NCBI GenBank assembly: GCA_914767715.1
Contig: OU612074.1
Span: 571,501-635,500, forward strand
Source of the DNA: Membranipora membranacea
Taxonomy: Eukaryota > Bryozoa > Gymnolaemata > Cheilostomatida > Membraniporidae
DNA length: 64,000 bases
Direction: 5' to 3'
This document shows positions 10,501-52,949 of this stretch, one piece after another. Within the stretch, counting starts at the first letter, position 1. Every line of letters begins with the position of its first letter. The notes below the pieces were generated by a model. The model saw only the letters and a program-made list of their open reading frames with translations. It made no database searches and had not been told where the DNA came from. The position numbers and the translations under genes were made by a program.

Positions 10501-13500
10501 TCATACATCACTTCATATCATCTCAGAAACTCATCTAACTTTTCGTGAACTGATATAAACATGGGGTCACCTGGCATGTTTTTTGCAGATCACGGAAGGT
10601 GTTTTGGGTTTGATGTAAGATATTGATTATTGAGGAAATAATCCTGCAAAAAGAACTTGCGCTCACCTGAATGATTTATTATCTCCTATATTGTACATTT
10701 CTTTCTCACAGGGACATAGCCCAGGCTGTGATTAATGACGCTGATCACTCCAGAGTTGATGATGACGCTGATGAGAGTATAAGTTATAGAACAGCTCGAT
10801 CTCCCAGCCCTGTACAAAGATCTCCTAGACAATCATCAAGAGCCAAGTACGTACCATCACTCCTCACATTTACCAGTTGACCCTAAATGATAACTCATAA
10901 TATCTCATAGGCTGCTATCTAAGAAAACATGTTGTCTTATTGAGAAAGGAAGATATATTCATCAGAGCTTGTATAGTAAGCGGATACTGGCTACGTATTA
11001 GTCTGAGCCCCTAGACACTTGTCCCCTGTCTTATGCCCCCGACAGTCGAAGACATCCTTTTGGCCAATCCAAAATCAACTTGAATATTGATTGGCTGTAA
11101 AGAATTATAATCAGTTCCTAATATCTCACAATGTCTATCTCTGAATTCGTTTTTTTGATGATGGCAGTTTTACTTAGAGGATCTAGATATTGCCAATGGT
11201 ATATTTTTCTTGTTATGTTAAAGTGGCTCATTGAGGAAAAAGTTGTCTCCTCTGTCACCATTGTCTGAACTTGGGTCAATGCTGGATGAGTAAGTTAAAA
11301 GCTAACCTGCTCACCCCCCCTCCCCCCAGTTCTACATATAGTTATAAGGTTCAGTCATAGACTTAATAATAGTTTTTCATTATTAAGTCTATGGGTTCAG
11401 GTCTTCTCCCCTCCCTGCTACTCTGCTAAAATGAGAAAAACGGTGATGCATGGCTTTCTGAAATACTGCAAAATAATGCTGCTCTATATGGTGAAGGATA
11501 GTTTGTGTAGAAACCCATGGGGAACTTGTGTTACTCGGAGGGGGAACTACTATTAAGGCTAGGCTTTCCCCTGCTTGTTACCTTGATTATTTCCTCTGAT
11601 AACACTTAAGCTAAACTAACTGGTGATGGATCTCAAGAACATGTAACATGTGGCGGTATTTCTCATGCGATGGTTCTGGGTTTGGGACAAACATCTTTAC
11701 TTCTCCATGCACAGAGGGTTATTTGGTTATACTATCATAGCGGCAAGCAATGTTAAATAATTTATTGGAGTAATGCATTTACAGAGGTGCTGTTTGTATA
11801 TAATGGCTCTATAAATACAATATATAAAAGAATGGGAGCTGCAGAATCACTTCTTAAGGGTTTCACACGCCTTGTGGTCCTCTCAAATACTCTATCAAGC
11901 AAAAAACCGTGAATCACACCATTCAAGGCATACAAACAAGTCTGCTAATATAGAATGTAGAATATATAGTACTATGATGAGTCAACCAAGGCCTACTCCC
12001 CCCACCACTGTAGGAGATCGTACGCTCACCTCCTGATATCGTGTTTTAGATCCCGATCACCTCAGAGAGCCAGATCTCCAGCCTTTGCTGACTCCACATT
12101 CTCTGCTGTCCAAGCAGCTCTCAACAAGCGTCAGTTACAGGTTAGTCTGATAATCTGTGTACTATAGTCTGATAAAACCTCTCATATAGTTTAGTTGCTG
12201 ACAATCAGACACAATAGCTAAAGGGTTTGTCTTATATAACTGGAGATCCCCCTCCGATTTCAACGAAACCAACTTGGCTGCTATACTACCCTATATGGGC
12301 ATCCTGTGATTCCCAAAACTTGACAAACAGGTCATATTTTTTGCCTCAAAAAAACCTATAACCACTCCCTTGAAACCTTGTTTCCAGTGACTAAATTTGT
12401 AAAATCATTTCTGCTTGTTATGATAGCCTGAGGACCCATTTGTATCACATCTTTTATTTCAGGTATCAGAGCTACGTGCCCGTCTTAACTCAGCTCGGGA
12501 TACTAATGAGCACCTGGGTAAAGAGCTAGGAGAGAAGGAGGCCAGTTACAGACAGATTGAGGGACGTCTCATGGAGTATAAGGAACAAGTGGACTCAGCG
12601 TAAGTCATCAATACAGATATATCAATAAGTATCACAGATACAACTCTATAAGTAAACTTATAAAGTTATTCAAAGTATTAGGCTTTTTAAATCCAAAAGT
12701 TTTTCAATACGTAAAACCTGTTTACAGTTTGACCACGCAGGTATTGTTAAACTCAGGTCCTAAAACCAATGCCTATACAATATCATTTGCAATTTCACAT
12801 TGGCATTGACTTCCTCATCCCCCCCCCCCCCAGTACAATCGGTAATCTGATTTTGCTTGATTACCTCTATTCAAGGGGTCAGCAAACCACTATAGAACTC
12901 CTGCTTTACATTCAGTCTTTTGCTGCCAGTAAACTACGAATCCACAATATATGTAATTAAATAAAATAGCCTAAGCACACAAACTAGCTACAAAACCCTT
13001 GTGACTAGAGATTTACTGTGTTGATATCCGAGTTAGTAGTGCTTTATTAGTTGGATAGTTATATTCATACTTACCCATTCCGTTATACAGTAAGAGAGAG
13101 CAGGACGCCAGTGATAGAGATCGGCAGCGATATAAGAGTCAGCTCGATGTAACAGGAAGTGAGAAAGGACAGCTAGAGAAGCTCCGCCTACAACTCAATG
13201 AACAGGTACGAGATAGATTCTGATTAACTTATTGTTTGTAAGGGGGTTAAACTTGAGAATTGTGGGGCGGCGTAACGCCATCGGAACGTGTAGAGGCATT
13301 GATTAACTGTCCATAATCCAGGTTTTTTGTTCATAACTCAATCAATCTTGATCGGATTTTGAATTTTAAAATTGATTTACGATTAGCAGCATCTTGTTAT
13401 CAACTTGATGCTATTCATTCTTTTTTGCCTCAAATTAGTACCAAACTGTTCAGGACAAGCTGTAGACTCTATTGTAATTTTCAAACTCCAAATCCGATCA

Positions 13501-16500
13501 AAATTGATCGAGCTATTGACAAAAAACCTGGATTTTGGACAGTAAGTCAATGATAGCATCATTGCTTCTACACCTTCCAATGACGTTACGTTGCCCCACA
13601 ATTAAATGCCTCAATGCTTATTCTCCATATAGTGTCCCATCTAGGTTTATATTAAGTCTATGGGTCTGCCTTATTTTTCTCATTTAACCTAAAGTAGTCA
13701 TAAGTTAATGAAAGCTCGAACCTTTGACAGAATTAATGATAATCATCCTAGCTTACAGCTACTGCTGTTTTCATTCAAAGTATTTGACCAGCACTGTTTA
13801 CATCACTCTATAACTTGGTCAGCTTGATGACTCCTCATGATGAGATAGACTAATGATTACAATCATTATTAATATCAAGTTTTGTAATTATTGAGTCTCT
13901 CCTGATGATTTTGTTATATTCCTATTGATAGATTGATGAGCTGAATAGTGAATGTGATAAACTGAAGCAGGCAAACTCAGAACTACAGAGACAGAGAGAT
14001 AATCTGGAGGATGAGAAAGAAGATGTAAACAAAGACAAGGACAGACAAATCAAGGAGAATCAGCGCTGGTTAGTACACTACTCACTCACCTACTAATCAT
14101 CTCTACTCCCTACTTGTCTACTAATCTCTGTACTAATCAGCGAGCCAGCCTCTATAAATAAATTAGTCTGGCTCACTTGAAATTATGTGCTCCTTGACAC
14201 AGATGACTCAACTCTCAAAACAATTTCTGGCATTAATTTTTTGCATGACAATTAAAATTTACAAATATCATAAGTGAAATCCGTCAACTGGGTACTATCT
14301 GCCTAAATGAGACTTCTTCAGCTACTCTTCTTTGATAACCTGAATATATTGTATTTTTATTATGTTTGTATTTTATTTTTCATTGATTTTTTTTAGTATT
14401 TTATATAAATATTATGTTTGTTTTATATTTATATTTTATTAATATTATATTTTTATTTTCTCACACAGTCACAAGGTGATAGAGCAGATAGAGAATAAGA
14501 ACTCGTCTCTCAGAGAGGAGAACGTGGATGTGAAGGAGCAGCTGAACCGAGCTCTACTAGAGAAGGATTGTCTGAGGCAGGAGCAGGGAGAGACCGCCGA
14601 CGCTCTACAGAAGATAGAACTACAGAACGCCGAGCTAGAAGTGGAGATAAACCGTCTGAGATCAGAAGAGGCCTCACTCAGGGACTCACTGCTGAAGATG
14701 CAGGCTCTGAATGAGGGGCTCGGTCAGGATAAGATTGAGCTCAACAGGATAGTCATGCAGCTGGAGCAGGATAAGGGCGCTCTCGAGGTGAGAGTTAATT
14801 CTGCTCTTCTTTGGATGTCTGTAGATTTTCAACTTCTCTCTTGCTTGAACCTGAAATTGTTTTTGTACATTAAACTTGTTTAGCTTGTTTCTTGGCAACA
14901 CAGCCTACTAAATGATTTTTGTGTGAAGACCTGTGTATACTTAGCAGCTGAAGTAGACATCTATAAGAAAGAATGATGAGCTTGCTAAAATAACTCATAG
15001 TTTATATTTTTGAAACAAAAACTGAATAGATATGTGAGATAAATTTTAGTTGCCTAGAATATCAAAACAATCATTCAAGTACACAACAGCTTTATTTGGT
15101 TCTACAAAAAACTCTCTTGCATATGCGGACCGTTCAAACAAAACCATGCATAACATCATTAACCTGGTGCAGATTCGATATAAATGATGATAACATTACA
15201 TTCTAGATATTATGAAATAATTTAATACTTGTTATAATACAATAATACATAATAAAATGATATTTATTATTATGAACAGGGCGACAGACATGCTCTTGAG
15301 AATGAGAAGGCAGGAATTAGGGAGGAGCTACTCAGAGTAGAACAAGAAAAAATGGAACTAGAGACAGAGAAGGCGGGGCTTAATACTACTATAGAGATAT
15401 CAGAGAATAACATTGAGCAGCTCAAGACTGAGATCCAGTATCTTAGTAAGGAGAAGGCTGAGGTTACTGATCATCTCAACGCTGTAAGTACAGGTGCACT
15501 CAATTAAACATACGTCTGGAGTTGTCTCACTTCTAACTTCCTATTAAAATTACAATTTTCTTCAGTCCGATCCGACCAGTCAGTTTTTACTATATATTTA
15601 CTTGTAAGTAGGGTTTATAGGGCATGCTGTATCAAAATCCGGCCTTGGCATATTCAACTTGGGCGATGCGACACATTAGATTACATGATTTTCTGATGTT
15701 CTGATATTTATCAATAAATTGGTATCTAAAAACCTACAATGCTATCAGATATCCCCTACACTTTGTTATCATAGCTAGGTTTTAAAAATTTGAGGCATTT
15801 CGATTTAATCAACATGTTCTATTCATCTAATTAGACAATGCGACAGAAGAATTCTCTAGCGGAGGAGTTAGTGAACGCTCGACGAGAGACAGAGAAGACT
15901 AATGAGACGTGTGTGAGGATCGCTAAGGAGAAGGAGTTCCTGACTAAAGAGAAAGCTCAGCTTATTGTCGATCTCACGGCCAGCGAGAGGGAGAACAGGA
16001 TGCAGTCCGAGGTAAGAATTCTTATAGTTACCTGACTGTAAACACCTCTTGTGTGAATATATTCAATATTAACGAACAGGCTGAGAGTACGCCGCAATAC
16101 CTTAGAATGTTTAAGATGAGCTGCTTAGTAGTAACCTTGTGAAGTATCAGAAAGCAAATATAAGTTACTTAACTGAGTTGAAAACTTTTGATAATTATTG
16201 AAATATATCAGCTCTGTTAACCCCTTAACCTATCGGGGAGTTCAAACCTGCTGCCTTTATGTAGAAACCAAAGCAAACATCACTTGACAATTATATATTT
16301 TACCTGCTTTAGGTTATTGCTGGACTACGAAGTGATAAGGATGCGTTAGAGACGGCCCTGTATGAACAACAGCAGGTAAACAGTAATCTAGAGACAAGAA
16401 AAGAGCAGCTAGAGGGAGAAAATCAGGAGCTTATCGTCAAGAAGGAATCTCTGCAAAGTAAGCCTAAACATTTAACCTTAGATTATGACTGATTTCAATA

Positions 16501-19500: not shown

Positions 19501-22500
19501 CTCTCAAAATAAATATATTACTGGAAAAAAAATGATCTATAAAATAATTTGTTTTTAGAATTCAAGCAGTTATCATTTTTTGTGTTAATCTTAATATATA
19601 AACAGTCATCCCAGTTACAGAATCATGTACAAAACAATATTATTGTTTTCAATAACAAGAGATTATAATAGGTTCTCAACTTAATTCAGTTATTGCAGCC
19701 ATGGGGTGGAGGGGCTACTGACTGCCCTGTGGTGCAGATCCAAAGCTTATACTTTGCATATCTATTGTTAAGTATGTTGCCTACTGGTGAATGTCAATTG
19801 CATCTTGATACGTATTTAGTGGTGCCAGGGTTGTCTTCTACTTTAAGGACTCACTGAAAAAATATAGCTAGGTATTGTGATAGACACAATCGGATCTGTT
19901 GAGGTTTAATCTCTGCTTGTCTCGTTTCACATGTGATATTTATACATCTCTCTTGTTGCAGCCGATGAGAATATCGAGCTGCAGCACAAACATGTGTTTG
20001 ATCTGAAGCGTAACGTAAACGACGAGATCCGAGAGAAAGAGGCTGTCGCTAAAACCGCTCAGGAGCTGAGGAACAAGGTCAAGGCCACGGAGGCCGAGAA
20101 GGTCGACCTGAGCAGAAATATACAAGAGCTCAGGCAGAGAGTGTCTAGTGAGTTAATTTGGTGATGATATTATGGTCTTCTGTCTGTTTTAGCATAAATG
20201 CATAAACTGAAGGCTGTTAGAAACCGGATCCTGATTTGTTCTGATGATGCACACTACCCCATCTGTCTGATTTTTATCATGCTCACATTTATTTGGGTTA
20301 TGCTAAGTTTGTGACAAAGGAACCAGGATGACAAGGTTTTAAGAATAGTTATTTACTCTAAGTACCTTTTTACACTGAGTAGAACTTTTAGATGATACAC
20401 TTGGAGCGAACATTAAGGACTAGTTATCCATACCCACACTGTATTACTGTTAATGTTATCATTGGTATCTATGTTTAGTTTTGGAGGAGCAGAAGCTCGG
20501 TATACAGAAGGAATCGTCAGAGTTACGTAACACTCTGAGAGAAGTAGAGAAGGCCAGATTAGACGCCAGAAGAGAACTACAGGAACTCAGACGTCAGGTA
20601 ATATTCTCACTGGGCTTAGCTCTGTCACTGATAGGTTGAACTATTGTCTTGAGTGTAATTGTTTTCATGATCAGTTTCAAGTTCTTAATCAGGTTCAGAT
20701 CAGGTTCTTAATACCAGTATCGAGTTCATTCCAACACTGCATGGCAAAAACCTCAATGTTCATCAAATAAATTGCAAGTGATCAAAATGGTCATTGTTGG
20801 TAGCTCAAAACAAATGCCATAGATCCACCTTAGACCCACCTAAGGCTCACCTTTGTCTCCCCCGTTCTCATATACAGATTAAGATGTTAGATGGAGAGAA
20901 GACTAAGTTATGTACAGAAGTAAACGATCTGCAGACTCGAGTAGCCAGAGATGAGGAGAGAGAAGAGGATAACAGGAAGGAGAACTTCGGACTCAAACAA
21001 AAGGTCGGTAAACATCGGACTACAAGCAGGTGTACGAAATGACATGTCACTAATTTGGTCATCACATATTCAAATGTTTGCAGATTTTTCTGAAAGCCCA
21101 AGTCATTCTGAGAATATGTTATTTGGATTTATTGATTTACTGAACTAGTTAAGTTTGGGTTTCATAGACATTGTCTATGGTGGTTTTTTTATATCTGCCT
21201 GCTTGGTAAGAATCAACAATTGGAATTATTTGAGGGCAGCGCCCGATAGGATACATCTAAGCAAGTTCGTGAGGAACAATTATACGGCTATCTTCCTCAT
21301 ACCAAGGAGTTAGAGACTCTAACTCTGAGTCTCTAGCTCCTTGCTCATACGTAATTTACAGTTTTTACAGGCCTGTAAATCTCATAAATACCATATTGGA
21401 TTCCTATTTGTATTATTCCTAATACAACTAACAACTTAGTAATAAAACATCCTTAGTCACCATGTGTATTATTTGCTGTCACAGGTGGTAGAGACAGAGG
21501 CATCACGAGAAGCGTTACGTAAGGAGTTATCTAATCAGCAGAGACGTCTGGCAGAGTTTGAGGATCAGGCTCGAGGTGTAGAGAAGGATCTCAAGCTAGC
21601 TCTGGATGAGAGTAGATGTTCAGAGAGAAGACTGGATGATAACAGGAAGAACCTGGAGATCCAGCTCGATAACACTAACGCTGAACTACAGGTCAGAATA
21701 ACTTACAGTTGAGACTGGCCAGATGTTGCTGTTACCAGTTGCTCACCACAATGAGACTGGGGGACAGCTCAATAAGCACTAGCGATATTCCTTTTCTTCT
21801 GTTGACTGCTTACTGACTAAAACTGATCTTTGATCCTCTTATGCTGATTTACAGGAGTGTAAGCTGGCGCTGAATGGTTCAGAGGGTCGTGTAGAAGCTC
21901 TCGAGTCTCAGCTAGCTAGACTGGAGGGACACAGGAGAGATCTGGAGTATAAACTAGCCAGTATTCACTCCTCACTCAGACGTAGCATAGGCTTCAGACA
22001 GGATAACTATGTAGATGGGAGGAGTCTACGTCCCCGCAGTACCAGCCCAAGCAGGCGTAGACCTCAGTCTCCAGCTAAAGGTAACTCAAAGTATACATCA
22101 AAGATTTTATAAAACAATAGTTTTTCTATAGAGTCAATTCTAGGCCTTCTGAGGTTGCTGCATATTTTACTTCTTGACTCAGGGCTGACTGTAATATACA
22201 CCTTTATCCTGCTGTTGAATTAGATAGTGTGTGTTGCTAAATTAGATTCCTACTACTTTGGAGATAAGTCACAGTACAAATGATAGATTAAAATCTCTCA
22301 GACCACTACTAGCCCTCAAACAAATATAAATTTTATCAGAACCAAGGCACAAAACTGAGGAAGACACGACAACAGCTGAAAGCTCATGTAAGCCATCAGA
22401 TTTCAGACACACACACTATCCCTCATAGTCCTAACCCTAGTCCTCTATATAATGCTTTTTTACTCACAGCGTAGAGTCACGAATCATGATTTTCGTATTT

Positions 22501-25500: not shown

Positions 25501-28500
25501 GTCTTGTGATTGGTTGAAACAATTGGGAAAAGGACATAATTAATTCAAAAAATAATTTTTTGATTAGCTGTTATTAATTAGGTTACAGATATGATCAATC
25601 CTGAGCTCACTTCGATTCAATATTTGTAAATTGGGTCTGATGTGAAATTCAATCAAGTTTTGATAAGTTGTATGTCATCTGCTTTTACTATTGCTTTATT
25701 CAGCACACAACGTACCAAGTACCAACCTCGCAAACTTCCATATCTGCATGCCTAGATTTTGTATCTGTGGGTCCACAGAACCCAATCCATCGTAGCCCTG
25801 GCTGTTATCATGTGCAGATATAGTAATCCACAATGAGAACAGTCATAGATTCATTCCTGTGATGTTATTTTGAAGTCTGTAGTGTCTCGTCAGATTGTAA
25901 GGTTATTCTCTCTAGCATGGCTTATTGTCGGCTGATATCATCGCTTCATGCACTAGTCAGACTCTTCTCACTGTTAGTAGAAAATATCCAAGGTCATTTA
26001 TCTCAACGGAAGATTTCAACTACAAATGACACAGTATTCTTAAAAGACTAGTTTAGCCCAACATCAATCGGGAGCGTGCGACGGGGACAATAATCAAACC
26101 CTGATTTTCCATGTAGATCATACTTACTCCATACTAATCGATGTTAAATACCCAACGAGAATTTTATCCCCAACCAACAATAAAGAAGCGTGTTATATCT
26201 TATTTAAAAAGCTGAGTTATGAGTTAAATATTACATCTCAGTCTGTATTTCACATTAACATAAATTTGGACTCTGTGCACGCAGGATAACACCAAAATGG
26301 AGGAGGATAAGAAGGCATTGAGGTCTTCACTAGAAGATGCAGAGAACAGGTGCACTAAACTAGAACTAACTAAGAGAGCATTGGAGGGAGATATGCAGAG
26401 AACTAAACTTGTCCTGACTGACAAAGATACCGAGATTCAGGTAAGATACACAGAATCTAATGAATGACCTTTATAAATATTGGTGCTTCGGCAGCTCAAA
26501 ATGGGCAGATTTCGGAACACTTGGATAAAAATGATAATGCAAGAGCCATGAAACCTGTCATTGGTACAATGGCTTTCTCAATTGTATGTGTTGTCGCCAA
26601 AATATAGGATTTCATTGCATTGGTCTGTAATGTGTACTCTGTACCTCAAACTTGGTCATAGCTTACTAGACATTCTGTACATGCTTATAGATCTTCTTCC
26701 TTCTCTATATGTATTATATCTTCAGGTATTGAATGAGAGGATTGAGAACTTAGCCAGACAGACACAAGAGATGGAAGGCAGAAATCAGAGTCTACAGCTT
26801 ACTGTGGATAGACTCTCTCTTACATTGGCTAAAACTGAAGAGGAAGAAGCCAATCAGAAGGTAGGTCCCGGATAAACAAACCAATCAGCTACCATTCTCA
26901 CCTCCATTTGAGAGACTCTCTACAAACTTCAGTTTCCCTGAGAGGGTCCATTTTGATTACTGTTCAAATTGTTCTTTTGTTTACTGGACACAGGGACTGA
27001 GGAAAGACCCCTGCTCCATACTGTAGGCCCACTGGATTTTATTCTATAATCAGCTTACCAATAGAGGAAAAGTAACATCATAGGAATCCAATTGTCAGCA
27101 ACTCAAAACATAGTCCTTATGTATTATTATGGTACTTACTGCTGGCTCAATATTTTGACATACCGTAAGGTCGCGTATTGTAACCACGTGGCTTGTTGGT
27201 GAACAGGCCTAGATTAATTTAGGAAACAAAACACAGATTTTAGCCATATCACACCAGCAAGCCCACTGTCATTTAACCACAATATCTAGCCGCCCAGGCA
27301 ATATAATGATCAAGAAATGTGCACACTATGTGTTACATGCTAATGCCCTCCTACCACACTGCACAAACCTGACCACTGCCCACAGCTGTCCTACTTACTT
27401 CTTCAAAACAAAACATTATGATACATTTCTGTCTGCCATAAGCATTGCATCGACTGGTTGGAGAAGAAGAATGCTGATTGGTTAACTATTGGTCAGATCG
27501 TTTCTAATTGGATTATAATCTTATGTAGGTGTAACGAGGCAACAACTGCTTGACCTTGGTCAAGCAGTTGTTACCTCGTTACACCTACATAAAATTATCA
27601 TACATTGAGCTCTCCAATTTTATACGTCTCTTCTGAGGTCGGATATTGTTAATAAAAATAAGAGATATATAGTCGATGCTAGCATGTTACAACTGAGTGA
27701 GTATGTATGTTCACTCAAGGAGTAAAATACTTTTACTCCTTGGTTCACTCATTAGCCGCCTGCCTATAGAATTTGGAAACAATGCCCTTATTATAACCGC
27801 GGTATGCTTGACTAAGTTTTAACCACTCATGGACATTAACCATGCGGCTACAATACGCGACTTTACGGTAATACCTTTTACATTTTTAGGACCGAGTACA
27901 GAATCTGAACATGTCCCTGTCAGAGAGCACAGCTACCATCTCAGAACTTCAGGAGAGAATCCAGCAGCTACAGAGGGCTCTGACCAGTTCAGAACATGAT
28001 AGGAGAGTTCTACAAGAGAGGCTCGATACTACCAGGTAACATAATATCTTATATAAATTATATATACATAAGGTTCATGTGTGTGCATATATATATATAT
28101 ACACACATTTGTGCAATAAAGTGTCATATATTATATATCCCACTATTGGTACCCATAAAAACCCTGGACATATATCTGAATGACTCAAATGGCAAATATT
28201 TGCATTGGAGTTGTCTGACCATGTCAGGCTATTTTATCTACCATTAAGTACTATTGGGTTAAGGATGCCCAACATGAGGATTTATGACATGGTTTTTTGT
28301 AGGTCATATAAAATGACTCCTTATTTTTGAGTGACACTTAGTTGGGGCCAAATACACACAGATGACACTTAAAAGCACAGATTTGAATCTATGTGTATAT
28401 ATATATATATATGATTGGTTATACATATGTTATACATCTTTAACTGACACTGATTTACGTATGGTATTTTTGGAACAGAAGACAATGCTAATGCTCGGTG

Positions 28501-31500
28501 AGCTATTGCATGGAAGAAAGAACCTTTCTTATCTTCTCGAAGTCACTTTATTGTAATGAATATGTTTTGACAGACAAGCACAGAATGAGACGAAGAAACA
28601 GAATCACTCCCTGATAGAGAGAGTACAAGCTCTACAGGCTGAGCTACAGGATAGTGAAGTGAGGAGAAACGAGCTAGAGGGTCAAGTCAGACAGAGCCAT
28701 GTGGTGAGTTAGCTCGTACTTTTGTATCATGCTCTATACGACAGAGCTAAGGAAAGGCCACAAGTGACAAACCGCAACTTAGAAGGCTAACATTTGCCTT
28801 TCTTTTGTGATTCGGCTCCAAAGACAAAACACACACATTGTGTGTTTTGTCTATGTTCGGCTCAGTCATCTCTAACTTTCAATAATCGAACGTCGAACGT
28901 CAAGGTCAAAGCCAAACCAAGTTAGATTCAAATAGCAGTTCATGTAAAGTATGAATGTGTCCATATTTTGTATCCACATTTGTAGTTGTTGGTGCAGAGA
29001 CAGGAAACTGAACAAGAACTAAATCAGAAGTTACAGAAGATAGGAGGTGATAGACAAGCTCTGCAGGTAAATTACTCATCTAGTTCTATGTTGTTATTTT
29101 AAAATAATACCCCATGACGCAATTCCTGCTAATATCTCTAATTATCAAGGACGCATCCAAACAGTGTCAACTAGTAGACTCTATATGTATAACTGACCAA
29201 ACTGTAGTTGATACTGAAATTACATTACCAGCAACCCGAGCAAAGTTTGGTCGATTGTACTACTCCTGCCTGTTGAGCTGGAGAGAGCAGTGCCTCCCCT
29301 TATAATTCCAGGTTTATCATATTTATTTATTATTATATAGGAGAGAGTTGGAAGCCTACAGAGAAATCTGGCTCAGCTTGAGACAGAAGCCAGAGAAACT
29401 CACAGAAGCGCCAGAACTCTGGAAAAAGACAAGAATGCACTCAGGAAAACACTCGATAAGGTGAGTAATTTATCCGGTCAAAAATTTAATTCATATTAAA
29501 TATTTGAAAGTTTGAAGTAGGAATTAGGAAGGTTTGCTGTTATACTTCATGCTGTGATTTAATCTTTTTTTGAGAAAGCATAATATGGATTGTCTTCTCT
29601 CGAATCAGCTGTAGATAACTGTGTAAGAATTAAGTGCACTTGAGAGCAAAGTCTTAAACTGACAGAACAGAACGTAGTCAACTCTTGTCCATTATAATTA
29701 TCACAGGATTTGCTGATGAAATATGAATGTTACACACTGTTTGTTTAGCATGTTTAACTTCAGAAATATATATATATGTATAACCCTTCTGTCTTCGCAG
29801 GTTGAGAGAGAAAAGCTGATGACTGACGAGAGAGTCAATCGCTCTGAGAGCGAGAAGACAAACCTCGGATCAACTCTCTGTCGTCTGGAGGAAGAAAACA
29901 TAGACTTACAGAGACAAGTACAGAACTTACAAGCTCAGCTAGCCGAAGTGGAGAGTCAGCACGCTCAGAGGTAAGATATAATAATAAATACGCATATAAT
30001 TTATATATATATATATACATACATACCGGTATATATTTATATAATATAGTCAGTCAACTTGCTTGAGATTTGTATATCGATTGTTCAGTTCAGTGGCGTG
30101 ATATCTGGGTCGCCCAGTAGCTTCTGAGGCAAGCGGCCGATTATTTGGTTGACGGAGCAAATGGAGCGCCGCTGTTAGTCAAAATTCACAGGAATTTATA
30201 AGTCATGTAGTATGACATTCCAGTACTAATAGAATACGAAACCCCAAGGTATTGCATATTTTATTTGAAGTAAAACCTAGCAAACTATCACAGTGTCAAG
30301 TATATCCTTACACCTTGACACTGCAGATGATATTGGAACCAGATATATTAACCTACATATCAATATTGTATGAAATGACTGATCCTTCATTGTGTTATTA
30401 TGAAACAGTACTGATAAAAATTCAGATGTTCAAGATTTGCTTGATTCGGAAGATAATGTCCGGTACAAGTTGAATCCCACTTACGCAATTGAGCCGCTCG
30501 CTGTCAAGTGTTATCTCATGGATGAAGGGTGACTAACTTGTTGTCATCGTGTTGCATGACCTTTAACTGCAAATCAAATTACCCTCCCCCCCCCCACCTT
30601 TCATGCATGAGTTGAGTGTATCAGGAGTCAATATCTGTGAACATCCGCTTTTCCTTTGCACAACTGTTCATGTGATATTTCTGGTATATCAATATACACT
30701 ATTATGTTGCTATCGCATATATTTTATCTTGCAAAATCCCATGTAATCGCGAAACACGCATTCATACGAGGTAACAATGGCTTGTATGATTCCCAACCCT
30801 AAAATGGTCAAGGTCCAAATTCGCCGATGTGAAGAAAGCATGAGGGTGCTCAACTCCAGTGATAGTGTGTCAGCATTCCCATAATGCAGTTCTGGAGAGA
30901 ACACTGGTTACACCAGTTGCATGATGAGATATTAGATATGATCACCTCTCTCTGCTTCTCAACAGGCTGATAGACTTGACTACCAGACACAGAGCAGAGA
31001 CTGAGATGGAGACAGAAAGACTGAGATCCTCGCAGATACAGGCTGAGAGGACACTGGAGGCTAGGGAGCGTTCCCACAGACAGAGAGTGAAGGGACTTGA
31101 GGAACAAGTGGCTACACTCAAAGATCAGCTCGGCCAGGAGATCAGGAAACGTCAGGCTTATATCAGGTGAGAGGATTATATACACAGTCTAGGTCTAGTC
31201 TAGGGGGCTCAGACTTTAGTACCGCCACGCACATCTAAGTCTAGGCTCCCTAGACTACTTCTATGGTCTATACACAGTAGCCCTACCTTAGTCTAGGGGT
31301 TCAGACTTTAATACAGCCACGTACATTTTAGTCTAGGCTCCCTAGAATATCAAGGCCACCATAGTCTATACATAGAAGCCCTCCCTTAGTCTAGGCTCCC
31401 TAGACTATCAAGACCTCTATAGTCTATACACTACTATACAAGGAAATGAATTTGGATTATGGTTAGCAAACTTTGCCACAACCAAGTGTGCTCAATCAAA

Positions 31501-34500
31501 TCACAGAGTAAGGATATATATCCTTACTCTGTGATCAAATTATACGTTCAAATAACACACATTAAAATCTACTCATGTCGCATATCCGCAAGTTTAAGAT
31601 AATAATACATATTATTTATCTGTCGTGTGACGCATTGTATAGCTATCTCAAATCCGACCTCTATGATAGTTTGAGCTGTGTCCTTTAGAATTTTTGGCAC
31701 GCTGCGCTCCCTCCGGATGTTCCCGGTTATTAGTTTGTCATCGTGCCAACCATATTATATAATCTTATGAACATAAGAACTGATTTCCTGGTTGACTGGG
31801 CAAAGAAAATAGTGTTAAGCTGTCAGAATTTGCTTATTCACACAAACAGACAGCCGGCACATGATCACAAATCGGTGCCTCATGATACATGTCCCCTGTT
31901 AGTAATTTCTCTATTGATACAGGATGGCATCTTCATTCATGTATTCGTGGTCGATGTTGTTTTCTGTCTATTTAGTCGAAGATTTGTCCATACAAGGACA
32001 CAATAATTGGTTTCTGTGTAAATACATAATAATAGGTGTATAATCTGTCCAAGATTGCAGTTTTTGCTCCAATCTATGAATTGTTTAATGGATTAACAGG
32101 TTTGTTCTGATCAGTCAACAACAAAAAAATCTTAACTGACTGTGATTTGAATGTCTGGGGACGAAAAAGTTAATAATTTAGCTTGAAACATACAGCCATA
32201 AGTAGTCACCTGGTTGGGGTAGTAAAATTTTCCCAGACCAGAATTTTTGCACCAAGAAGTAACAACACTGAGGAAGCCGGGCGGCCGGCCTGTGAACTGT
32301 GATATTATTGTTTGCAAATTTTGTAGACATTGAGTCATAGGCACATTCATTACATTTACCTTATTATAATTGGTGAGCCCTGATTGGACGGTTAATGTTG
32401 ACCTAGCACTCAGCTATCTATGTTTATGACATCTCTAGATATGATAACCTGTATCGCCCACCCCCTCAGTTCTCATCTGATATAGAGATCTTACTATCAG
32501 TAATATACCTTTGATTTCATCAAAAGTAAACTGGCTGTCAGAACCTAGCTGTAAAAATCACACCAAAATTATATCAAGAAATATATATTTTGCAATCAAT
32601 CATGCTGTTTTCTCAAACATATTATTAATGTTCCTCTGCTGTGCTGGAAATTGATATGAAACTTCAGAAGTCGTCTTTATAGTCATGACATGATTGAGAA
32701 GGTCACATGGTTTGATTCTCTTGTTTTGATCAGATAGTATAAAAGTTAAACTGTATTTTTCCTCAAACTCGATTATAGGTCATGGGAAAGTCCATTGATC
32801 CTTCCTGCCCACTATATCATCACAGAGTAAGGGTATTTACAATGTATCCTTACTCTGTGATATCATGCAGGAATTTCTCTGTCAACTCTATTAACACAAA
32901 ATTGTTTCCTCAAACCAAAATGCAACAAATTTCTAAGCAGAAGCCTTGACATCATCTAAGTTATTTCATTGGCTCTGGCCAGTGAGAAAGACACCGCTGG
33001 ATGGTGCTGATTTTGTTTTGACATAATTAATTCCTAAGAAATCATCATGCCAGTCAAATCATGCCTTGTTTATTACGATCTTAGTGATTGATATTCGAGC
33101 CGGTATACACATTATACACATTATCAGTACTAGTTTAGGGCTGTTTTCCTCATTCTTGTGGTTGTGACGCAATATTTTTTACGCATATTCTTTGAAAACA
33201 CAGGTGAAGCCTGACGTGAAGAATCATTAGGTAATAAGGAACTGTCCTACATAGCCTTATTTTCATCTCAAGATTTGTGTGTTAATTTGAGAGGCCGGCC
33301 GTCCGTCTGGCCAGGGGCTGAAGTCTGGGAGGCTCAGACTATTAACAGAACTGAGCTGAGTTATTATGATGCAGTATGCAGGGTGCAGTATGTACCTAGT
33401 GACCACGTTAGTGAGGGATATGTGCATAGAATGAAAATAAAAGGCTCAGCAATGAATTTATTTTTTTAGACATAAGTTACAAAGGCTCATATACTGACTA
33501 ACCGCTTTATAGGTTTCTTTTATCTCAGACCCGCTAACCGGCGGCGTGTTATTTGGGTCCCCTACTAACAGGAAGCGGGGGGGGGGGGGGGAGAATGGGA
33601 GAGTTTATCCAATTTGTTCAAAACATTCTTGTGTGTGGTCGACCAGACACTTTTCTCTTTTGGTGGTATATAAGTTTGTCACACTAATCAGCAATACAAT
33701 AACTAAAAAAATAACTGATAAAAACAGATTTAAAACTAAGTGAATGAGATGTTCTGCTAGTTTCTTTTCCAAATAGAAATTTCCTCCCAGCAGGGTTAAT
33801 TGCGCTGCCGCGATATGACAGCTTTGAAGGTTTGAGTTCTTTATCTTAGTGGCATCCAAATATCGAAATAACGGAATGCCACTACCAGCATCCCAATCAA
33901 CAAGCGCTAAAGATAATGTATTTGTAATATATATAATATAATATATATAATGTTCTGACATGGTGTGATTTGAAACTACATCATGAAAACCACATTCCTC
34001 ATACGTTACTCAATGGCTAATGCAACATTTTTTCAGTTTATTTGCATAGTCCTATTTTTTGTTGAATCTTTGTTTGTATATTTTTTCTTTTTTTGCCATT
34101 TATGTCACATCATGAATAACATTTGAAATAATGAATTGTTGCTGACAATAAAAGTATATATATACGCTTGATTTAAACGTTACGTAGCAATGTTTGTATT
34201 TTCTCGCTTCAGTCGTTCAGCAAGAACTGGTGATGACATCAGAGAAATCAGGAACATACTCGACACATCGCTTAGTAATGTAGCCCGAGATCCTAACCTT
34301 GATAGTATACTTCTGGAACAGGAGGCTAAGAAACTAGATGAGTCACTCGGAGGTAAGTAGGACTTACATCAGTGTTTTTACATTCTTCTATGAAGCCTTA
34401 TACACACAGAAATATTTAAAGTTTAAATCTTGGCTATATCTGATAACAAGTTTATTGGCTGCTCTGAATTTGGCGGCTTATTTTACATCGATTTCATCAC

Positions 34501-36822: not shown

Positions 36823-36842
36823 CACAGAGTAAGGTTATATTA

Positions 36843-36880
<38 letters not shown>

Positions 36881-36899
36881 TATAATATCCTATTCTGTG
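36823..36899. repeat. CACAGAG snapback with expanded TA core
   Basis: CACAGAGTAAGGTTATATTA at the left and TAATATCCTATTCTGTG at the right, around a long (TA)n. Flanking bases are not a clean direct repeat. Copy 2 has a shorter TA tract (about 40677-40749). Confidence 0.75.
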
Positions 36900-37259
36900 A
36901 TATCCCATGGTCAGTAAGGAAATCCTTCATCTGAGAAGAGATGATCATATGATACACCGGGATAAGGATAATCCACACTGGGATTTCCAGCCAGTGCAGC
37001 GGTCCAGAGTCCAGTCATAGTTTGAGGGAGGTCGTGACTCATTGGATGAGACATAGCTTCAGGCCGGGCCGGAGGGGAGAGATGTCATTTATTTAGCTCC
37101 GTATTAGATCATTTCGTTTTGCATGTAGGATAGTCTTGGAACATAGACTTCCTCTGCAGTGTAACACAGCAGTGATTTTAGAATAAAAAATGATGGCTTA
37201 CTAAGTTCAAGGTTAGGACAATACAAGTACTACACTCTATGTGCTGGTTCAGTTCTAAC

Positions 37260-37296
37260 CATAGAATTAATAATAAACCTTACTATTAAGTCAATG
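37260..37296. repeat. Snapback insertion (CATAGA family)
   Basis: 37-bp imperfect palindrome CATAGAATTAATAATAAACC..TATTAAGTCAATG, flanked by gttctaac and gttgtaac (7 of 8). Copied with the duplication at 41110-41146. Confidence 0.65.
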
Positions 37297-38128
37297 GTTG
37301 TAACAGATTTTAGGTTCCGCTCTTCATAAATGGGAACTTAGACTTGGTGAGTTATTTCAAGTCCTGAGTTGTTGAGAAAACATATTATGCTTTATTTCAT
37401 GGATGCTTTGACATAATCATGTTGGTGTGTTACCGATCCCCCTTCCAAAGTTTGACACTTTGCTGGGATGGGTGACTCATGTATTAGATAACCAGACATT
37501 CACAAATCACAGCCTGATATAACATATTATATATTAGTACATGAGATCAAATCTGGTTGGCTACTTCCTCAATGCTTGCAGGCAAATTATTAGCAGTATT
37601 AGCAGGCAAATTATGATATTTTTTTCAAAACATTCCATTCACAGTCAATCAGAATGCCTCAGTACATTTAAATAATAGACAAAGTGTACTAGTTTTCTAT
37701 AGAAGTTTAAAGTGTTTTTGCCAAAATCACAATTATGGGAGCATTCCATATCAGCAAAGCAAAGAGAAGAATAAACGCCTCTAATACAAAAACATCCTTC
37801 AATGACCTTTTATTCTCCGATTGCCCATGTAAATGTTTTGGTTATCAAATCTCAGTAAAACACAACGAGGAAGGCTTAGTTCACAGTCTATGACCAATAA
37901 GAAACTTGTATTTTCTTGCCAACATGGTTTCGAAACTTGTTAACACTGCACTCACCTTGTTATTACTGCTAATTCGGCAATTTTTCTTTAAATAGATGTG
38001 CTTTTTTTGCCATTTATGTCACATCATGAATAGCATTTGAAATAATGAATTGTTGCTGACAATAAAAGTATAAATATATACGCTTGATTTAAACGTTACG
38101 TAGCAATGTTTGTATTTTCTCGCTTCAG

Positions 38129-38268: not shown

Positions 38269-38837
38269 GTAAGTTGGACTTACATCAGTGTATTTACATT
38301 CTTCTATGAAGCCTTATACGCACAGAAATATATAAAGTTTAAATCTTGGCTATATCTGATAACAAGTTTATTGGCTGCTCTGAATTTGGCGGCTTATTTT
38401 ACATCGATTTCATCACAGCAGGAAGAATGATGCTTTATGGCTACTTTTACTTCGCATTTTAACTTTCAGGGAGCCATAAAATCATGAAATCAGTATGTGT
38501 TGAAATTTGCAAATGTGCAAATTGTTCTATCAAAACTGCAAAAAGTCAGCATTAGGAAAGCCTAATAAATTTTCCTAAACCAATTTTCAAGAATTGAGCT
38601 GGCTCTAGTTGCTGATTGGTTGATTAATACTTTCGTTTGGTTATAATTCTATAATCCAATAAGTTATGAGCTGGCATTAAAACTTTGTGAGTTGAATTAC
38701 TTTACAACTCTACTCTCAATCACATACTGCATAAACCAATTGTATTCACCGGAAGTTCAAATGTTTTTGATATCAGTCATGAAGTTGATATCTGTCAAGC
38801 ATATTGAGAGGCAAATTTGCAGATTTGACAACCAGAT

Positions 38838-38858
38838 CACAGAGTACCTTACTCTGTG
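38838..38858. repeat. 21-bp CACAGAG snapback, duplicate copy
   Basis: Same element and accagat flanks as 34922-34942, carried by the tandem duplication. Confidence 0.9.
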
Positions 38859-38967
38859 ACCAGATCAATGATAAATTTTATGATAACCGAGCAGATAGAC
38901 CACTACATATTCTCTTATCTTGCATTGATGAGATGACTAATACCTAGAGTGTTACATTGTATTACAG

Positions 38968-40730: not shown

Positions 40731-41840
40731 TATAATATCCTATTCTGTGATATCCCATGGTCAGTAAGGAAATCCTTCATCTGAGAAGAGATGATCATAT
40801 GATACACCGGGATAAGGATAATCCACACTGGGATTTCCAGCCAGTGCAGCGGTCCAGAGTCCAGTCATAGTTTGAGGAAGGTCGTGACTCATTGGATGAG
40901 ACATAGCTTCAGGCCGGGCCGGTGGGGAGAGATGTCATTTATTTAGCTCCGTATTAGATCATTTCGTTTTGCATGTAGGATAGTCTTGGAACATAGACTT
41001 CCTCTGCAGTGTAACACAGCAGTGATTTTAGAATAAAAAATGATGGCTTACTAAGTTCAAGGTTAGGACAATACAAGTACTACACTCTATGTGCTGGTTC
41101 AGTTCTAACCATAGAATTAATAATAAACCTTACTATTAGGTCAATGGTTGTAACAGATTTTAGGTTCCGCTCTTCATAAATGGGAACTTAGACTTGGTGA
41201 GTTATTTCAAGTCCTGAGTTGTTGAGAAAACATATTATGCTTTATTTCATGGATGCTTTGACATAATCATGTTGGTGTGTTACCGATCCCCCTTCCAAAG
41301 TTTGACACTTTGCTGGGATGGGTGACTCATGTATTAGATAACCAGACATTCACAAATCACAGCCTGATATAACATATTATATATTAGTACATGAGATCAA
41401 ATCTGGTTGGCTACTTCCTCAATGCTTGCAGGCAAATTATTAGCAGTATTAGCACGCAAATTATGATATTTTTTTCAAAACATTCCATTCACAGTCAATC
41501 AGAATGCCTCAGTACATTTAAATAATAGACAAAGTGTACTATTTTTTTAATAAAAGTTTAAAGTGTTTTTGCCAAAATCACAATTATGGGAGCATTCCAT
41601 ATCAGCAAAGCAAAGAGAAGAATAAACGCCTCTAATACAAAAACATCCTTCAATGACCTTTTATTCTCCGATTGCCCATGTAAATGTTTTGGTTATCAAA
41701 TCTCAGTAAAACACAACGAGGAAGGCTTAGTTCACAGTCTATGACCAATAAGAAACTTGTATTTTCTTGCCGACATGGTTTCGAAACTTGTTAACACTGC
41801 ACTCACCTTGTTATTACTGCTAATTCGACAATATTTCTTT

Positions 41841-45890: not shown

Positions 45891-45897
45891 ATTTATA
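45891..45897 (-). promoter_or_regulatory. TATA box of the 45.2-kb gene
   Basis: TATAAAT on the minus strand, 61 bp upstream of the chosen ATG. Spacing allows a short 5' UTR of roughly 30-35 bases. Confidence 0.55.
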
Positions 45898-45899
45898 CA

Positions 45900-48469: not shown

Positions 48470-48479
48470 TATATAAAGG
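48470..48479 (+). promoter_or_regulatory. Plus-strand TATA element with no following ORF
   Basis: TATATAAAGG, a strong TATA match facing right. About 170 bp downstream is a good donor-like ATACT|gtgagt (48649/48650). A short non-coding first exon would fit, but no coding exon was found before 52 kb on this strand. Confidence 0.35.
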
Positions 48480-48915: not shown

Positions 48916-49163
48916 AATCATTGTGACCCACCGCTAAACGCAAGGTATTTCGCGTAGGTGCTCATATCAAAGTCGGAAATCATTGTGACCCACCATAAAC
49001 GCAGGTATTTCGCGTAGGTGCTCATATCAAAGTCGGAAATCATTGTGACCCACCATAAAACGCATGTAATTCGAGTTGGTGCTCATATCAAGTCGGAAAT
49101 CATTGTGACTCACAGTTAAACGCAGGTAATTCGCGTCTGTGATCATATCAAGTCAGAAATCAT
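48916..49163 (+). repeat. 60-62-bp tandem repeat, four units
   Basis: Units start aatcattgtgacccacc at 48916, 48978, 49038 and 49098, share cgcaggtatttcgcgtaggtg and ctcatatca.agtcgg, and diverge toward the right. A partial fifth unit follows. Confidence 0.92.
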
Positions 49164-50159: not shown

Positions 50160-50189
50160 GGTTTGGAGTGAGGGGCTGCCACTAACCAC

Positions 50190-50245
50190 TCTTGATGCTG
50201 CCTGATTATGTGTAATCTACTCGCCAGGATGACGCTGCCTGTCAA
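50190..50245 (-). pseudogene. Relic of a third membrane-protein paralog (start codon lost)
   Basis: The minus strand reads cttgacaggcagcgtcatcC TGGCGAGTAGATTACA, aligning with the start of the intact gene (cttgacagctatcatcATGG CGAGTGAACTACAG). The ATG is now CTG (50225-50227) and the following frame soon ends. Flank homology continues to about 50960. Confidence 0.6.
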
Positions 50246-50318
50246 GAAGAAAAATCATAAGTAATTTACAGTCTTTCGGAGTATTTAGTTTTTCCCACCA
50301 TCCACTATACAGCGCAGG

Positions 50319-50433
50319 CAATACTAGTCTTAGTGCTCAGACGGCTACAATACGAATTTGTGGCATTACATTATCACCGAGTGATATTGTAATGTCACTT
50401 ACTCGTATTGTATGTATTGACTAAGACTAGGCT
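50319..50433. mobile_element. Foldback (MITE-like) repeat, about 115 bp
   Basis: Inverted arms: actagtcttagt, caatacga and cattacattatcac at the left are mirrored by gtgatattgtaatgtc, cgtattgt and actaagactag at the right. No direct repeat at the flanks was seen. Confidence 0.7.
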
Positions 50434-51068
50434 AGACTAAGACAATACAAAATAAAGGCTTGCCATGATGCAATTCGTATTTTCAAAAGGTTTTAGATTT
50501 TATTCTGAAAAATCTACTTAGCAGAAAAAAAATACAAGTAAGTTACAGATCAGTTTTTTTTCTGTACAGATGATTACCTTACTTGAGACGCTAACCTTAA
50601 TCAAGTGCCGCTTACTAACACCAGTTTGCTTGGGGCAGATCTGGATCCACCGCGATGCTATCTTTGAATGAGTTGAGATTACTCATTTGTGCTAAAATAC
50701 TAAGAAGTTGTATCAGCCTCTGGTCCGATTATTCTTTATTAGATATGTTTAGGTGCGTAACAGGGATACTCGGCTAGAAGCAGTCCTGTCTTTAAAATAA
50801 GGAAATTAACCACCCGCTCAAATTTTTATTATGATGAACTTCAGTTCATTCCAAACCGTCCAATATTGAATACACAGAATGAGGCTGCGTATAGGGTCTT
50901 CACTTGTTTTCCAGATATAGTCGTTTGCGCAATGATGAGTAATACAAAGTTCCTGATAATGTTATGTTATTGAGGCTGCAAAATTGATCTATACCAAAGT
51001 TCCTGTGAATTTGTAAATATCTTATAGTTATTTCACATCGTTGATCAGTGCAAACTCATGGCAGCCGA

Positions 51069-51164
51069 GACATGTGACAGTACAAACATGTGATAGTACA
51101 GACATGTGATAGTACAGACATGTGATAGTACAGACATGTGATAGTACAGACATGTGACAGTACA
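51069..51164 (+). repeat. 16-bp minisatellite, six units
   Basis: Unit acatgtgatagtacag, with gtgacagtac variants at both ends. Confidence 0.93.
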
Positions 51165-51542
51165 AAATCTTAGGTCCCAATCAGGACAGAACCGGTGAAT
51201 CCTGTGCCTTCGTACCAAACTCCTACAATAATCCCCCCTCAACAACAACAACAATATTATATCCACTTATTCTAACGAGCAAGTGACAGCTTTTGTGGAT
51301 TGACAGGAACAGAACCCTTTACTGTAATGTTTGATATTGCCTACTAGCCTACTATTTTGTATTGTATAACTAAAACCTCAGCTGTTATTGCTGTTTGGTG
51401 TTTTTTTCGCAGTGTATATATATTTAACTATCGAGACAAGGGTCCGATCCCTGTCCCTGCATGTCATTCATTACAGAAGTAAGACATATGTGTAAACTGG
51501 GTCGGCCATTGCAATGGAATATAAAAGGAAGAGGAAGACATT

Positions 51543-51620
51543 GATACCATAGACATCGCTACCATAGACATTGATACCATAGACATCGCTACCATAGACA
51601 TCCGTACCATAAGCATCGGT
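51543..51620 (+). repeat. 15-bp minisatellite, about five units
   Basis: Units accatagacatcgct, with attgat and atccgt variants, running up to the snapback at 51630. Confidence 0.9.
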
Positions 51621-51629
51621 AGTCTAGAT

Positions 51630-51649
51630 CATAGAGTTATAACTCTATG
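51630..51649. repeat. Minimal 20-bp snapback with 8-bp direct repeats (CATAGAG family)
   Basis: Perfect palindrome CATAGAGTTATAACTCTATG flanked by gtctagat at 51622-51629 and 51650-51657. It is the shortest member of the class seen here. Confidence 0.9.
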
Positions 51650-52949
51650 GTCTAGATCTATGATTTCAACATTACTTCCGTTGAGAGGAAAACTCGAAAA
51701 TACCAGTATTGGGTAACATGACTTCATATTTGTGTTTTGGTATTATTTTACAGCAACTTGAGTACTACTGGCGTGATGTCCTTGCAGGAAGGAAGTTACT
51801 TGTTACCAAAGTTTTCGTATAATATCAAAAATAAAACTGGAATTTAAGTGTACACAATTCACTGTATGTATTGAAATTTAGAACAATTTAAAATAAAAGG
51901 TTCATCAGTTAACGTAATCATAGTTGGGATAATGAAACTGTACTCCGAATTCAGGCAAATGCGGCAATGTAGGGGTGTGTACTAGAGAGTCACACATAAG
52001 AAAATACATCATTATAATGTACTGTGATTCTTACTGCTTTATAAAAGAGCTAAATATGAAAAAATGATTCTAGGCAGCCGGTCAAATATACCATCTGACA
52101 AAACAATGACATCACTAATACGCAATTATCTCGGGGCAGCGCTAGTAAACATTCTATTGATGATAGAATGATACACACATTAAACCAGGAGAGGAAAGGT
52201 AGCAAGAGTCTGTCCGTACCAACAAAAAAGTGTCATCAACAAAACTGTACAAACAGTATATAGACTGGTGTAAATAATACAAAAACATTACAAGCAATGT
52301 GACATGGATTCAGGGTGGGGTCATACCCTCCCATCACTAAATAACATAGCTGTCTCATTACAGTCTATCACTTATAGACAGTTATCTACTTGATTACACA
52401 TCTCAAACAGAAAAAAGAGGTAAATATACAAATTGCCAACATTGGATTTATAAGAAGGCACATCTTTGGTACAATATCGAGTATAAAAATGCGGAAAATT
52501 TATTATTCAAAAGCACTTACATGATATCATAGTAGTATGTAGGTATTCAGTAGTCATGTGAGAGTAATGGGGACTAGATTGTACAGTAATTCAATATCAG
52601 ACTAAGATTAGCATCGGAGGGGGGGCGGGGGAGATAACTTAATATAAATACCTGACTGTGACTTACAAGTAAATGCTTCATTTCAGACTGACAACAATCT
52701 AGGAAAATAACACATGGGTTAGATATGGGGATTCTGCTAGTGATTTTTGAAATAAAAATCCATGTTAAAGGGCCCCTGGATCAATTTTTTCCCAGTAGCT
52801 CAGTCTTTAGATTCCTGCATTCAGTGTTAAACACCTCAGCCAACCTTGTTGGAAGAACATCATTAAGATGGTAATTGATGTCAATAAATGCATTGGAAAA
52901 AAACCCCATGATATCGAAAGGAAACCCCCCACGGTGATTGTGGAGTAGA

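What the first reader, a model, noticed from the sequence alone, without database searches (positions are those of the whole stretch)
11348..51657. A class of ultrashort snapback insertions (20-41 bp) with 7-8 bp target-site duplications
Nine independent loci share one architecture: a near-perfect palindrome that begins CA and ends TG, flanked by a direct repeat. Loci, with flanks: 11356-11393 (ggttcag + mismatch), 21303-21343 (ctcatac), 27716-27742 (gttcact), 28819-28855 (ttcggctc), 31502-31533 (atcaaat), 32821-32859 (atatcat), 34922-34942 (accagat), 37260-37296 (gttctaac/gttgtaac), 51630-51649 (gtctagat). Two more are copies carried by the tandem duplication. Flanks differ at each locus, as expected for target-site duplication. 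Known MITEs usually exceed 100 bp, and 20-21 bp is too short for ordinary transposase end recognition unless two abutting 10-bp ends suffice. Inference: either minimal two-end remnants of several cut-and-paste families mobilised by a host transposase, or palindromic filler left by staggered-break repair. The sequence subfamilies (CACAGAG, CAAGGAG, CATAGA/CAAAGAC) argue for a family origin.
Basis: partly seen in the sequence, partly recalled or inferred. Interest (0 to 1): 0.88.

Follow-up and report, generated by a model that had tools for sequence, protein, structure and literature searches.

The report
Excision scars of P-like transposons
The tiny mirror-image inserts in this genome, probably that of a sea mat, look like repaired scars left where P-element-like jumping genes cut themselves out, rather than a new kind of ultra-small jumping gene.

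Summary
All nine palindromes are present; seven have perfect 7-8 bp flanking repeats, two have one mismatch, and both tandem-duplication copies exist. Shuffled sequence almost never gives such inserts. The genome is probably the bryozoan Membranipora membranacea (inferred). Genome-wide, CACAGAGTA...TACTCTGTG occurs 938 times (control 0) and CAAGGAGT...ACTCCTTG 3084 times (control 4).

Best explanation: excision footprints of P-superfamily transposons. Fly P transposase cuts 17 nt inside the element; end joining leaves TSD, up to 17 nt of each end with a small overlap or filler, and TSD. Published fly footprints share this architecture and the commonest length, 30 bp (PMC2895639).

Longer elements with matching ends and TSD length exist: L022:8142-8910 (769 bp, 7-bp TSD) and L008:898-3139 (2242 bp, 8-bp TSD). 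P-type transposase domains are abundant (134 matches), but none was physically linked to these ends. One footprint has 22-nt arms, beyond 17. The mechanism is known; my paper searches listed no natural genome-scale archive of such junctions.

The parts
11348..11401 (.). Footprint 11356-11393 (38 bp, CATAGAC ends) with 8-bp TSD GGTTCAGT/GGTTCAGG
21296..21350 (.). Footprint 21303-21343 (41 bp, CAAGGAG ends), TSD CTCATAC x2; arms agree for 17 nt with 1 mismatch, then 7-nt filler
27709..27749 (.). Footprint 27716-27742 (27 bp, CAAGGAGTAAAA ends), TSD GTTCACT x2
28811..28863 (.). Footprint 28819-28855 (37 bp, CAAAGAC/CATAGAC ends), TSD TTCGGCTC x2; arms agree for 17 nt with 1 mismatch, then 3 nt
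31495..31540 (.). Footprint 31502-31533 (32 bp, CACAGAG ends), TSD ATCAAAT x2; reads as 17+17 nt with 2-nt overlap
32814..32866 (.). Footprint 32821-32859 (39 bp, CACAGAG ends), TSD ATATCAT x2
34915..34949 (.). Footprint 34922-34942 (21 bp, CACAGAG ends), TSD ACCAGAT x2
38831..38865 (.). Copy of the 34922 footprint carried by the tandem duplication (38838-38858)
37252..37304 (.). Footprint 37260-37296 (37 bp, CATAGAA/CATTGAC ends), TSD GTTCTAAC/GTTGTAAC; degenerate
41102..41154 (.). Copy of the 37260 footprint in the tandem duplication (41110-41146), one substitution
51622..51657 (.). Footprint 51630-51649 (20 bp, CATAGAG ends), TSD GTCTAGAT x2
36823..36899 (.). CACAGAGTAAGG...CTATTCTGTG pair around a (TA)n core, 77 bp, no clean TSD; second copy from 40677. 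Degenerate relative, an exception to the model
13633..13662 (-). Solitary end CATAGACTTAATATAAACCTAG... resembling the long-element end in L008, followed by GGTCTGCC; no second GGTCTGCC in the window (+ strand)
21163..21179 (.). CATAGACATTGTCTATG, 17 bp, flanks match weakly (6 of 8, by eye); possible decayed footprint

Best explanation
Each palindrome is the scar of a departed P-superfamily transposon. Step 1: an element with CA...TG inverted ends inserted and duplicated 7 or 8 bp of target (shown for two long elements and for the scars). Step 2: a P-type transposase cut it out with a long staggered cut, leaving about 17 nt of element as a 3' single strand on each flank (inferred; in the papers I saw, 17 nt is measured for the fly enzyme). 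Step 3: the two overhangs, near-identical in sequence and so not complementary overall, were joined by end joining through a few nt of microhomology or with filler (inferred from the junction spectrum; polymerase theta is the likely enzyme by analogy with flies). The result is a 16-48 bp near-palindrome between two TSD copies, with constant ends and a variable middle.
For: (1) Same architecture as sequenced fly P footprints: TSD-CATGATGAAATAAC(AT)GTTATTTCATCATG-TSD and variants (PMC2895639, passages, section 7 with Table 1; Table 1 is from Rad51-deficient spn-A flies). (2) Length: 26 of the 50 listed CACAGAGTA palindromes (of 938) are 30 bp, range 24-43; 14 of the 44 fly junctions compared are 30 bp. 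(3) The commonest bryozoan sequence (17 of 50) is 17+17 nt of CACAGAGTAAGGATATA overlapping at TATA; the 32-mer is a 2-nt overlap, the 34-mer a blunt join. (4) In 14 footprints of 34 bp or more, exact arm agreement stops at 18 nt or less in 13 of 14; with one mismatch allowed, in 12 of 14 (power limited, see full report). (5) Some fillers look copied from the arms: 21303, C1:10144795, C1:10218373 (my reading). (6) Long elements with the same ends and subfamily-matched TSD: L022:8142-8910 (769 bp, CAAGGAGTAAAA, TSD 7/7, about 42-bp TIR; 3 two-ended copies in the genome) and L008:898-3139 (2242 bp, CATAGAC, TSD 8/8, subterminal inverted repeat near 103-149). (7) In 264 kb all 6 independent matches to the two genome-wide patterns have a perfect 7-bp TSD. 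(8) P-type transposases: PF21787 134 matches; a 233-aa frame hits PF21787 at 1e-43 and the solved P transposase 6p5a at 3.5e-7. (9) 7- and 8-bp TSDs both occur in the P superfamily (Galileo; PMC4168063 passages).
Against: No P transposase gene was tied to these termini. L014:1354 has exact arms of 22 nt, beyond 17, and one C1 footprint reaches 20 nt with one mismatch. 37260 is degenerate. 36823-36899 has no clean TSD. TSDs were not checked for the genome-wide pattern matches outside the fetched stretches. No long parent of the CACAGAG group was found. No other individual or species could be examined.
Confidence: 0.83

Rival explanations
1. Nano-MITEs: the 16-48 bp palindromes are themselves mobile, bound as two abutting ends by a transposase and inserted with target duplication.
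For: Constant ends, clean TSDs in the fetched stretches, thousands of copies, and one identical 30-mer in 17 of 50 listed places.
Against: The 50 listed places hold 27 distinct sequences: 9 are 30-mers, of which 8 differ from the commonest by substitutions and may be later decay, and 18 have other lengths with central overlaps or fillers. The modal class has the size and share found in fly excision footprints (14 of 44). A 16-20 bp DNA has no room for two separately bound, synapsed ends (recalled).
Confidence: 0.07
2. Internal-deletion derivatives: ordinary elements or MITEs that lost their middle through interrupted gap repair (SDSA) after excision, leaving short ends in place.
For: Also predicts TSD plus variable middles. 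Incomplete repair synthesis followed by end joining is common in wild-type flies (PMC2895639 passages). Would explain L014 (22-nt arms).
Against: Predicts a broad tail of 50-700 bp copies with the same ends. In 264 kb the scan (ends 6 of 7 and 11 of 17 alike, TSD) found none between 49 and 768 bp with these ends, apart from the degenerate 36823 pair and its copy. The genome-wide patterns cap length at 46-48 bp, so the tail was not measured genome-wide.
Confidence: 0.07
3. hAT-type or other cut-and-paste families made the scars.
For: 8-bp TSDs and CA...TG ends fit hAT. Elements of 78-493 bp with hAT-looking ends (CAGTGGCG, CATGGGCCC) and 8-bp TSDs, some with one mismatch, occur here.
Against: Two subfamilies have 7-bp TSDs. 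hAT excision makes hairpins on the flanks and leaves little of the element ends (recalled), so 10-17 nt arms are not expected. hAT transposase was not searched (one search did not complete).
Confidence: 0.05
4. Chance palindromes.
For: None at the strict setting; with one TSD mismatch about 3 of 9 rows are expected by chance.
Against: Shuffles and reversed-pattern controls: 0 against 938 and 4 against 3084.
Confidence: 0.005

Closest known systems
Drosophila P-element excision footprints repaired by polymerase-theta end joining (PMC2895639)
   Same: 8-bp TSD, CA...TG palindrome of retained ends of up to 17 nt, short microhomology or filler, commonest length 30 bp in the subset compared
   Different: There: induced excisions at one site, Table 1 from Rad51-deficient flies. 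Here: natural scars of several families in one genome, some with 7-bp TSD
Galileo (P superfamily, PMC4168063)
   Same: 7-bp TSD, sometimes 8; preferred TSD GTANTAC shares T at position 2 and A at position 6 with the 7-bp sites here (17 of 24 each, both orientations counted)
   Different: Long TIRs there; no genome-wide footprints in the passages I read; end sequences not compared
Zebrafish Pdre2 (PMC10983969)
   Same: Ends CATACCTGTCAAC, 8-bp TSD, P-type transposase
   Different: Different end sequence; excision tested, no natural footprint archive in the passages I read
MITEs
   Same: Non-autonomous, TIR plus TSD
   Different: These are 16-48 bp and look like products of excision, not of insertion

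Membership tests
P-superfamily excision footprint | 7-8 bp TSD on both sides | tested here: met
   12 independent perfect-TSD cases in 264 kb; 7 or 8 bp by subfamily. Not checked for the genome-wide matches
P-superfamily excision footprint | Element ends CA...TG in inverted orientation | tested here: met
   (CA/TG was also a search condition)
P-superfamily excision footprint | Retained ends of about 17 nt or less | tested here: inconclusive
   exact arm agreement at most 18 nt in 13 of 14, but half-lengths of 17-24 limit the test; L014 has 22. The cut site was not measured
P-superfamily excision footprint | Junctions with microhomology or filler | tested here: met
   overlaps of 2-4 nt, blunt joins or fillers among 50 listed
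P-superfamily excision footprint | Long elements with the same ends and TSD length in the genome | tested here: met
   L022:8142-8910 (CAAGGAG) and L008:898-3139 (CATAGAC); none found for CACAGAG
P superfamily | P-type transposase (RNase-H and GTP-binding domains, THAP) in the genome | tested here: met
   PF21787 134 matches; PF21787 at 1e-43 with PF21788 just under its cut-off. THAP exons are my own reading of L027/L029, no profile run
P superfamily | That transposase lies between the footprint ends | tested here: inconclusive
   no end reached; end-search positions not next to transposase hits
hAT | 8-bp TSD (recalled as typical of hAT) | tested here: not met
   CACAGAG and CAAGGAG groups have 7 bp; the CATAGA group has 8
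hAT | hAT transposase (PF05699) on these ends | not tested
   one search did not complete
MITE (mobile as such) | Copies share the whole sequence at different TSDs | tested here: inconclusive
   one 30-mer in 17 of 50 listed places, 27 distinct sequences in 50; recurrent microhomology joins predict the same

The most novel reading that the evidence does not exclude
In this bryozoan the default fate of a P-like insertion is excision followed by polymerase-theta-type end joining. Whole families have been largely cut out of the genome (3084 CAAGGAGT palindromes against 3 two-ended copies of the one long CAAGGAG family that I could count), perhaps by a transposase acting as an excision-biased or regulated eliminator. 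The genome would then hold a natural archive of thousands of double-strand-break repair junctions.
Probability: 0.25. Interest if true: 0.8.

Novelty: new variant of a known kind. Interest (0 to 1): 0.6.

Why it matters
Thousands of scars with recognisable ends would give a natural record of which microhomologies and fillers germline end joining uses in an animal far from flies. They would also make it testable whether the atypical 17-nt stagger, measured for the fly enzyme, is shared across the P superfamily. And they warn TE annotators that 16-48 bp TSD-flanked palindromes can be excision scars rather than ultra-small MITEs.

Tried and rejected
Chance was rejected by shuffles and reversed-pattern controls. 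A peculiarity of this window was rejected by stretches from elsewhere and genome-wide counts. Non-CA snapbacks were seen and set apart. Palindromy of target sites: weak for the 12 seven-bp sites (3.17 against 2.37, p 0.03), not significant for the 8 eight-bp sites (p 0.18). Linking ends to transposases by coordinates did not succeed. Paper searches for ultrashort palindromic MITEs or natural P footprints listed nothing that by title or start of abstract describes this; one search found no paper, and one search listed 15 of 23. Not done because the genome machine was mostly unreachable: CATAGACTT pattern count, hAT transposase.

Full report
WHAT THE WINDOW IS. The window is G000:C10:571501-635500 of a 339,339,785-bp genome in 18 contigs. 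Eleven contigs are over 23 Mb; one of the seven small ones is 14,741 bp. The abstract of PMC10290214 (its start seen in a search listing) gives Membranipora membranacea 339 Mb, 11 chromosomes and a 14.7-kb mitochondrial genome. The species is therefore inferred. Several open frames in the first 31 kb look like coiled-coil (rootletin-type) exons; that is my reading, and no gene model was made.

OBSERVATION. All nine palindromes exist. Their TSDs are perfect in seven and have one mismatch in two. Both tandem-duplication copies are there (38838-38858; 41110-41146). The duplicated blocks are 98.9% and 99.2% identical. In the window plus twenty 10-kb stretches from elsewhere there are 12 independent perfect-TSD cases, against a total of 1 in 20 shuffles. 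Outside the window are L003:7430, L010:3662, L014:1354, L015:5523 and L017:8998 (perfect TSD), and L005:2233, L009:4847 and L021:3747 (found by motif), each with one TSD mismatch. That is 8 in 200 kb. L002:1507 came by similarity and is not in that count. Six other one-mismatch rows (L009:7470, L010:7602, L015:8912, L018:9211, L019:7926, L021:870) have no family ends and I dropped them as chance; the shuffle mean for such rows is 3.1.

TWO GROUPS. CACAGAG and CAAGGAG ends go with 7-bp TSDs; CATAGA/CAAAGAC ends go with 8-bp TSDs. L021:3747 has a CAAGGAG left end and a CACAGAG right end, so the two 7-bp groups are probably related.

GENOME-WIDE. CACAGAGTA-N(0-30)-TACTCTGTG: 938 places, control 0. 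CAAGGAGT-N(0-30)-ACTCCTTG: 3084 places, control 4. The control is the pattern read backwards. TSDs were not checked for these places, but in the 264 kb in hand all 6 independent matches to the two patterns have a perfect 7-bp TSD. Only the first 50 places of each are listed, all on C1. Lengths of the 50 CACAGAGTA places: 24-43, 26 of them 30 bp. Lengths of the 50 CAAGGAGT places: 16-42, 46 of them 31 bp or less. The patterns allow up to 48 and 46 bp and demand 9 or 8 exact terminal bases, so more decayed, more trimmed or longer scars are not counted.

MECHANISM. The fly P transposase leaves 17-nt non-complementary 3' overhangs (PMC2895639, passages; PMC10983969, passages, calls this staggered cut atypical). 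Table 1 of PMC2895639 (section 7 read) lists junctions made by joining them in spn-A (Rad51-deficient) flies. Of the 66 junctions I count in it, I compared the 44 that keep element letters between two full TSDs; 22 were dropped (20 long-microhomology, one TGA, one deleting into the TSD). Their commonest length is 30 (14), then 32 and 35 (5 each), range 7-44. The bryozoan CACAGAG list has the same mode. Its commonest sequence (17 of 50) is two copies of CACAGAGTAAGGATATA overlapping by TATA; the 32- and 34-mers read as a 2-nt overlap and a blunt join; others carry fillers. Of the 27 distinct sequences, 9 are 30-mers, 8 of which differ from the commonest by substitutions and may be later decay; 18 have other lengths.

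HOW GOOD IS THE 17. The 17-mer was read from the footprints themselves. As a less circular check I took 14 footprints of at least 34 bp and measured how far the two arms agree: exactly, 13 of 14 stop at 18 nt or less (L014 22); with one mismatch, 12 of 14 (L014 24, one C1 case 20). The test is modest: half-lengths are 17-24, so arms could not be much longer, two of the 14 reach their half-length at 17 and 18, and in several an early mismatch ends the exact count. 21303 and 28819 stop at 17 with one mismatch.

PARENTS. L008:898-3139 is 2242 bp with CATAGAC ends, GGTGCAAT duplicated on both sides, and a 46-bp subterminal inverted repeat near 103-149. Its first 150 bp has 1082 first-look candidates genome-wide, of which 40 were scored. 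L022:8142-8910 is 769 bp with a TIR of about 42 bp beginning CAAGGAGTAAAA and ATCAAAC on both sides; three two-ended copies and one single end were found. L008 has no frame over 64 aa inside; L022 was not tested for frames. No long parent of the CACAGAG group was found.

TRANSPOSASE. PF21787 (TNP-like RNase H) gives 134 matches (211 candidates, 150 scored) and none in 14 control genomes; the answer does not say which genomes these are, so the control may say little about animals. Some matches are pieces of one gene. L023 and L024 are two copies 99.6% identical over 3405 bp. A 233-aa frame of L023 hits PF21787 at 1e-43 and the solved fly P transposase 6p5a at 3.5e-7. The C11:7308354 element carries what I read as THAP exons (L029, L027; no profile run). 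I reached no element end, so the tie between transposase and footprint ends is an inference from superfamily features (CA ends, 7-8 bp TSD, footprint shape).

TARGET SITES. With both orientations counted, the 12 seven-bp sites show T at position 2 and A at position 6 in 17 of 24 each; the eight 8-bp sites show G at 1 and C at 8 in 10 of 16. Galileo prefers GTANTAC (PMC4168063 passages). The palindrome test is weak (p 0.03 and 0.18).

VERDICT. The palindromes are best read as excision scars. Cut position, repair enzyme and the exact transposase remain inferred. The ratio of scars to long elements cannot be stated for the genome, because parents were counted for one family only.

Noticed in passing
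L012:6357-6440; L003:7356-7415; L019:2899-2944; L010:1389-1424: A second snapback class, TAG...CTA, 36-84 bp, apparently with 9-bp TSDs by eye (taagaaccc; agc[g/a]atcac; tgtgcacac; the L010 case weak). Several arms are 18-30 nt, so perhaps true small elements. L007:7995-8106 (112 bp, TAG...CTA) lacks an obvious TSD.
   Followed up: partly
window 16472-16534: TTAA-CCTTAG...CTAAGG-TTAA snapback of 63 bp, piggyBac-like ends (recalled).
   Followed up: no
L025 (C11:7306601-7307600): Inside a P-like element three imperfect repeats each carry AAGGAGT and ACAACTCC; possibly transposase-binding repeats related to the CAAGGAG ends.
   Followed up: no
G000:C1:2191732-2191788: A CAAGGAG palindrome (2191732-2191758) directly abuts a CACAGAG one (2191759-2191788), as if one element had inserted at the very end of another.
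   Followed up: no
window 1529-5625 and 9912-10479: Long tandem arrays (33-bp and 15-bp units); the 15-bp array is open as a repeating GISVS frame on the plus strand.
   Followed up: no
L020:2926-3336, L019:7716-8130, L003:6531-6784, L010:6098-6590, L018:1660-1737: hAT-looking elements (CAGTGGCG or CATGGGCCC/CATTGGCCC ends) of 78-493 bp with 8-bp TSDs, some with one mismatch.
   Followed up: no
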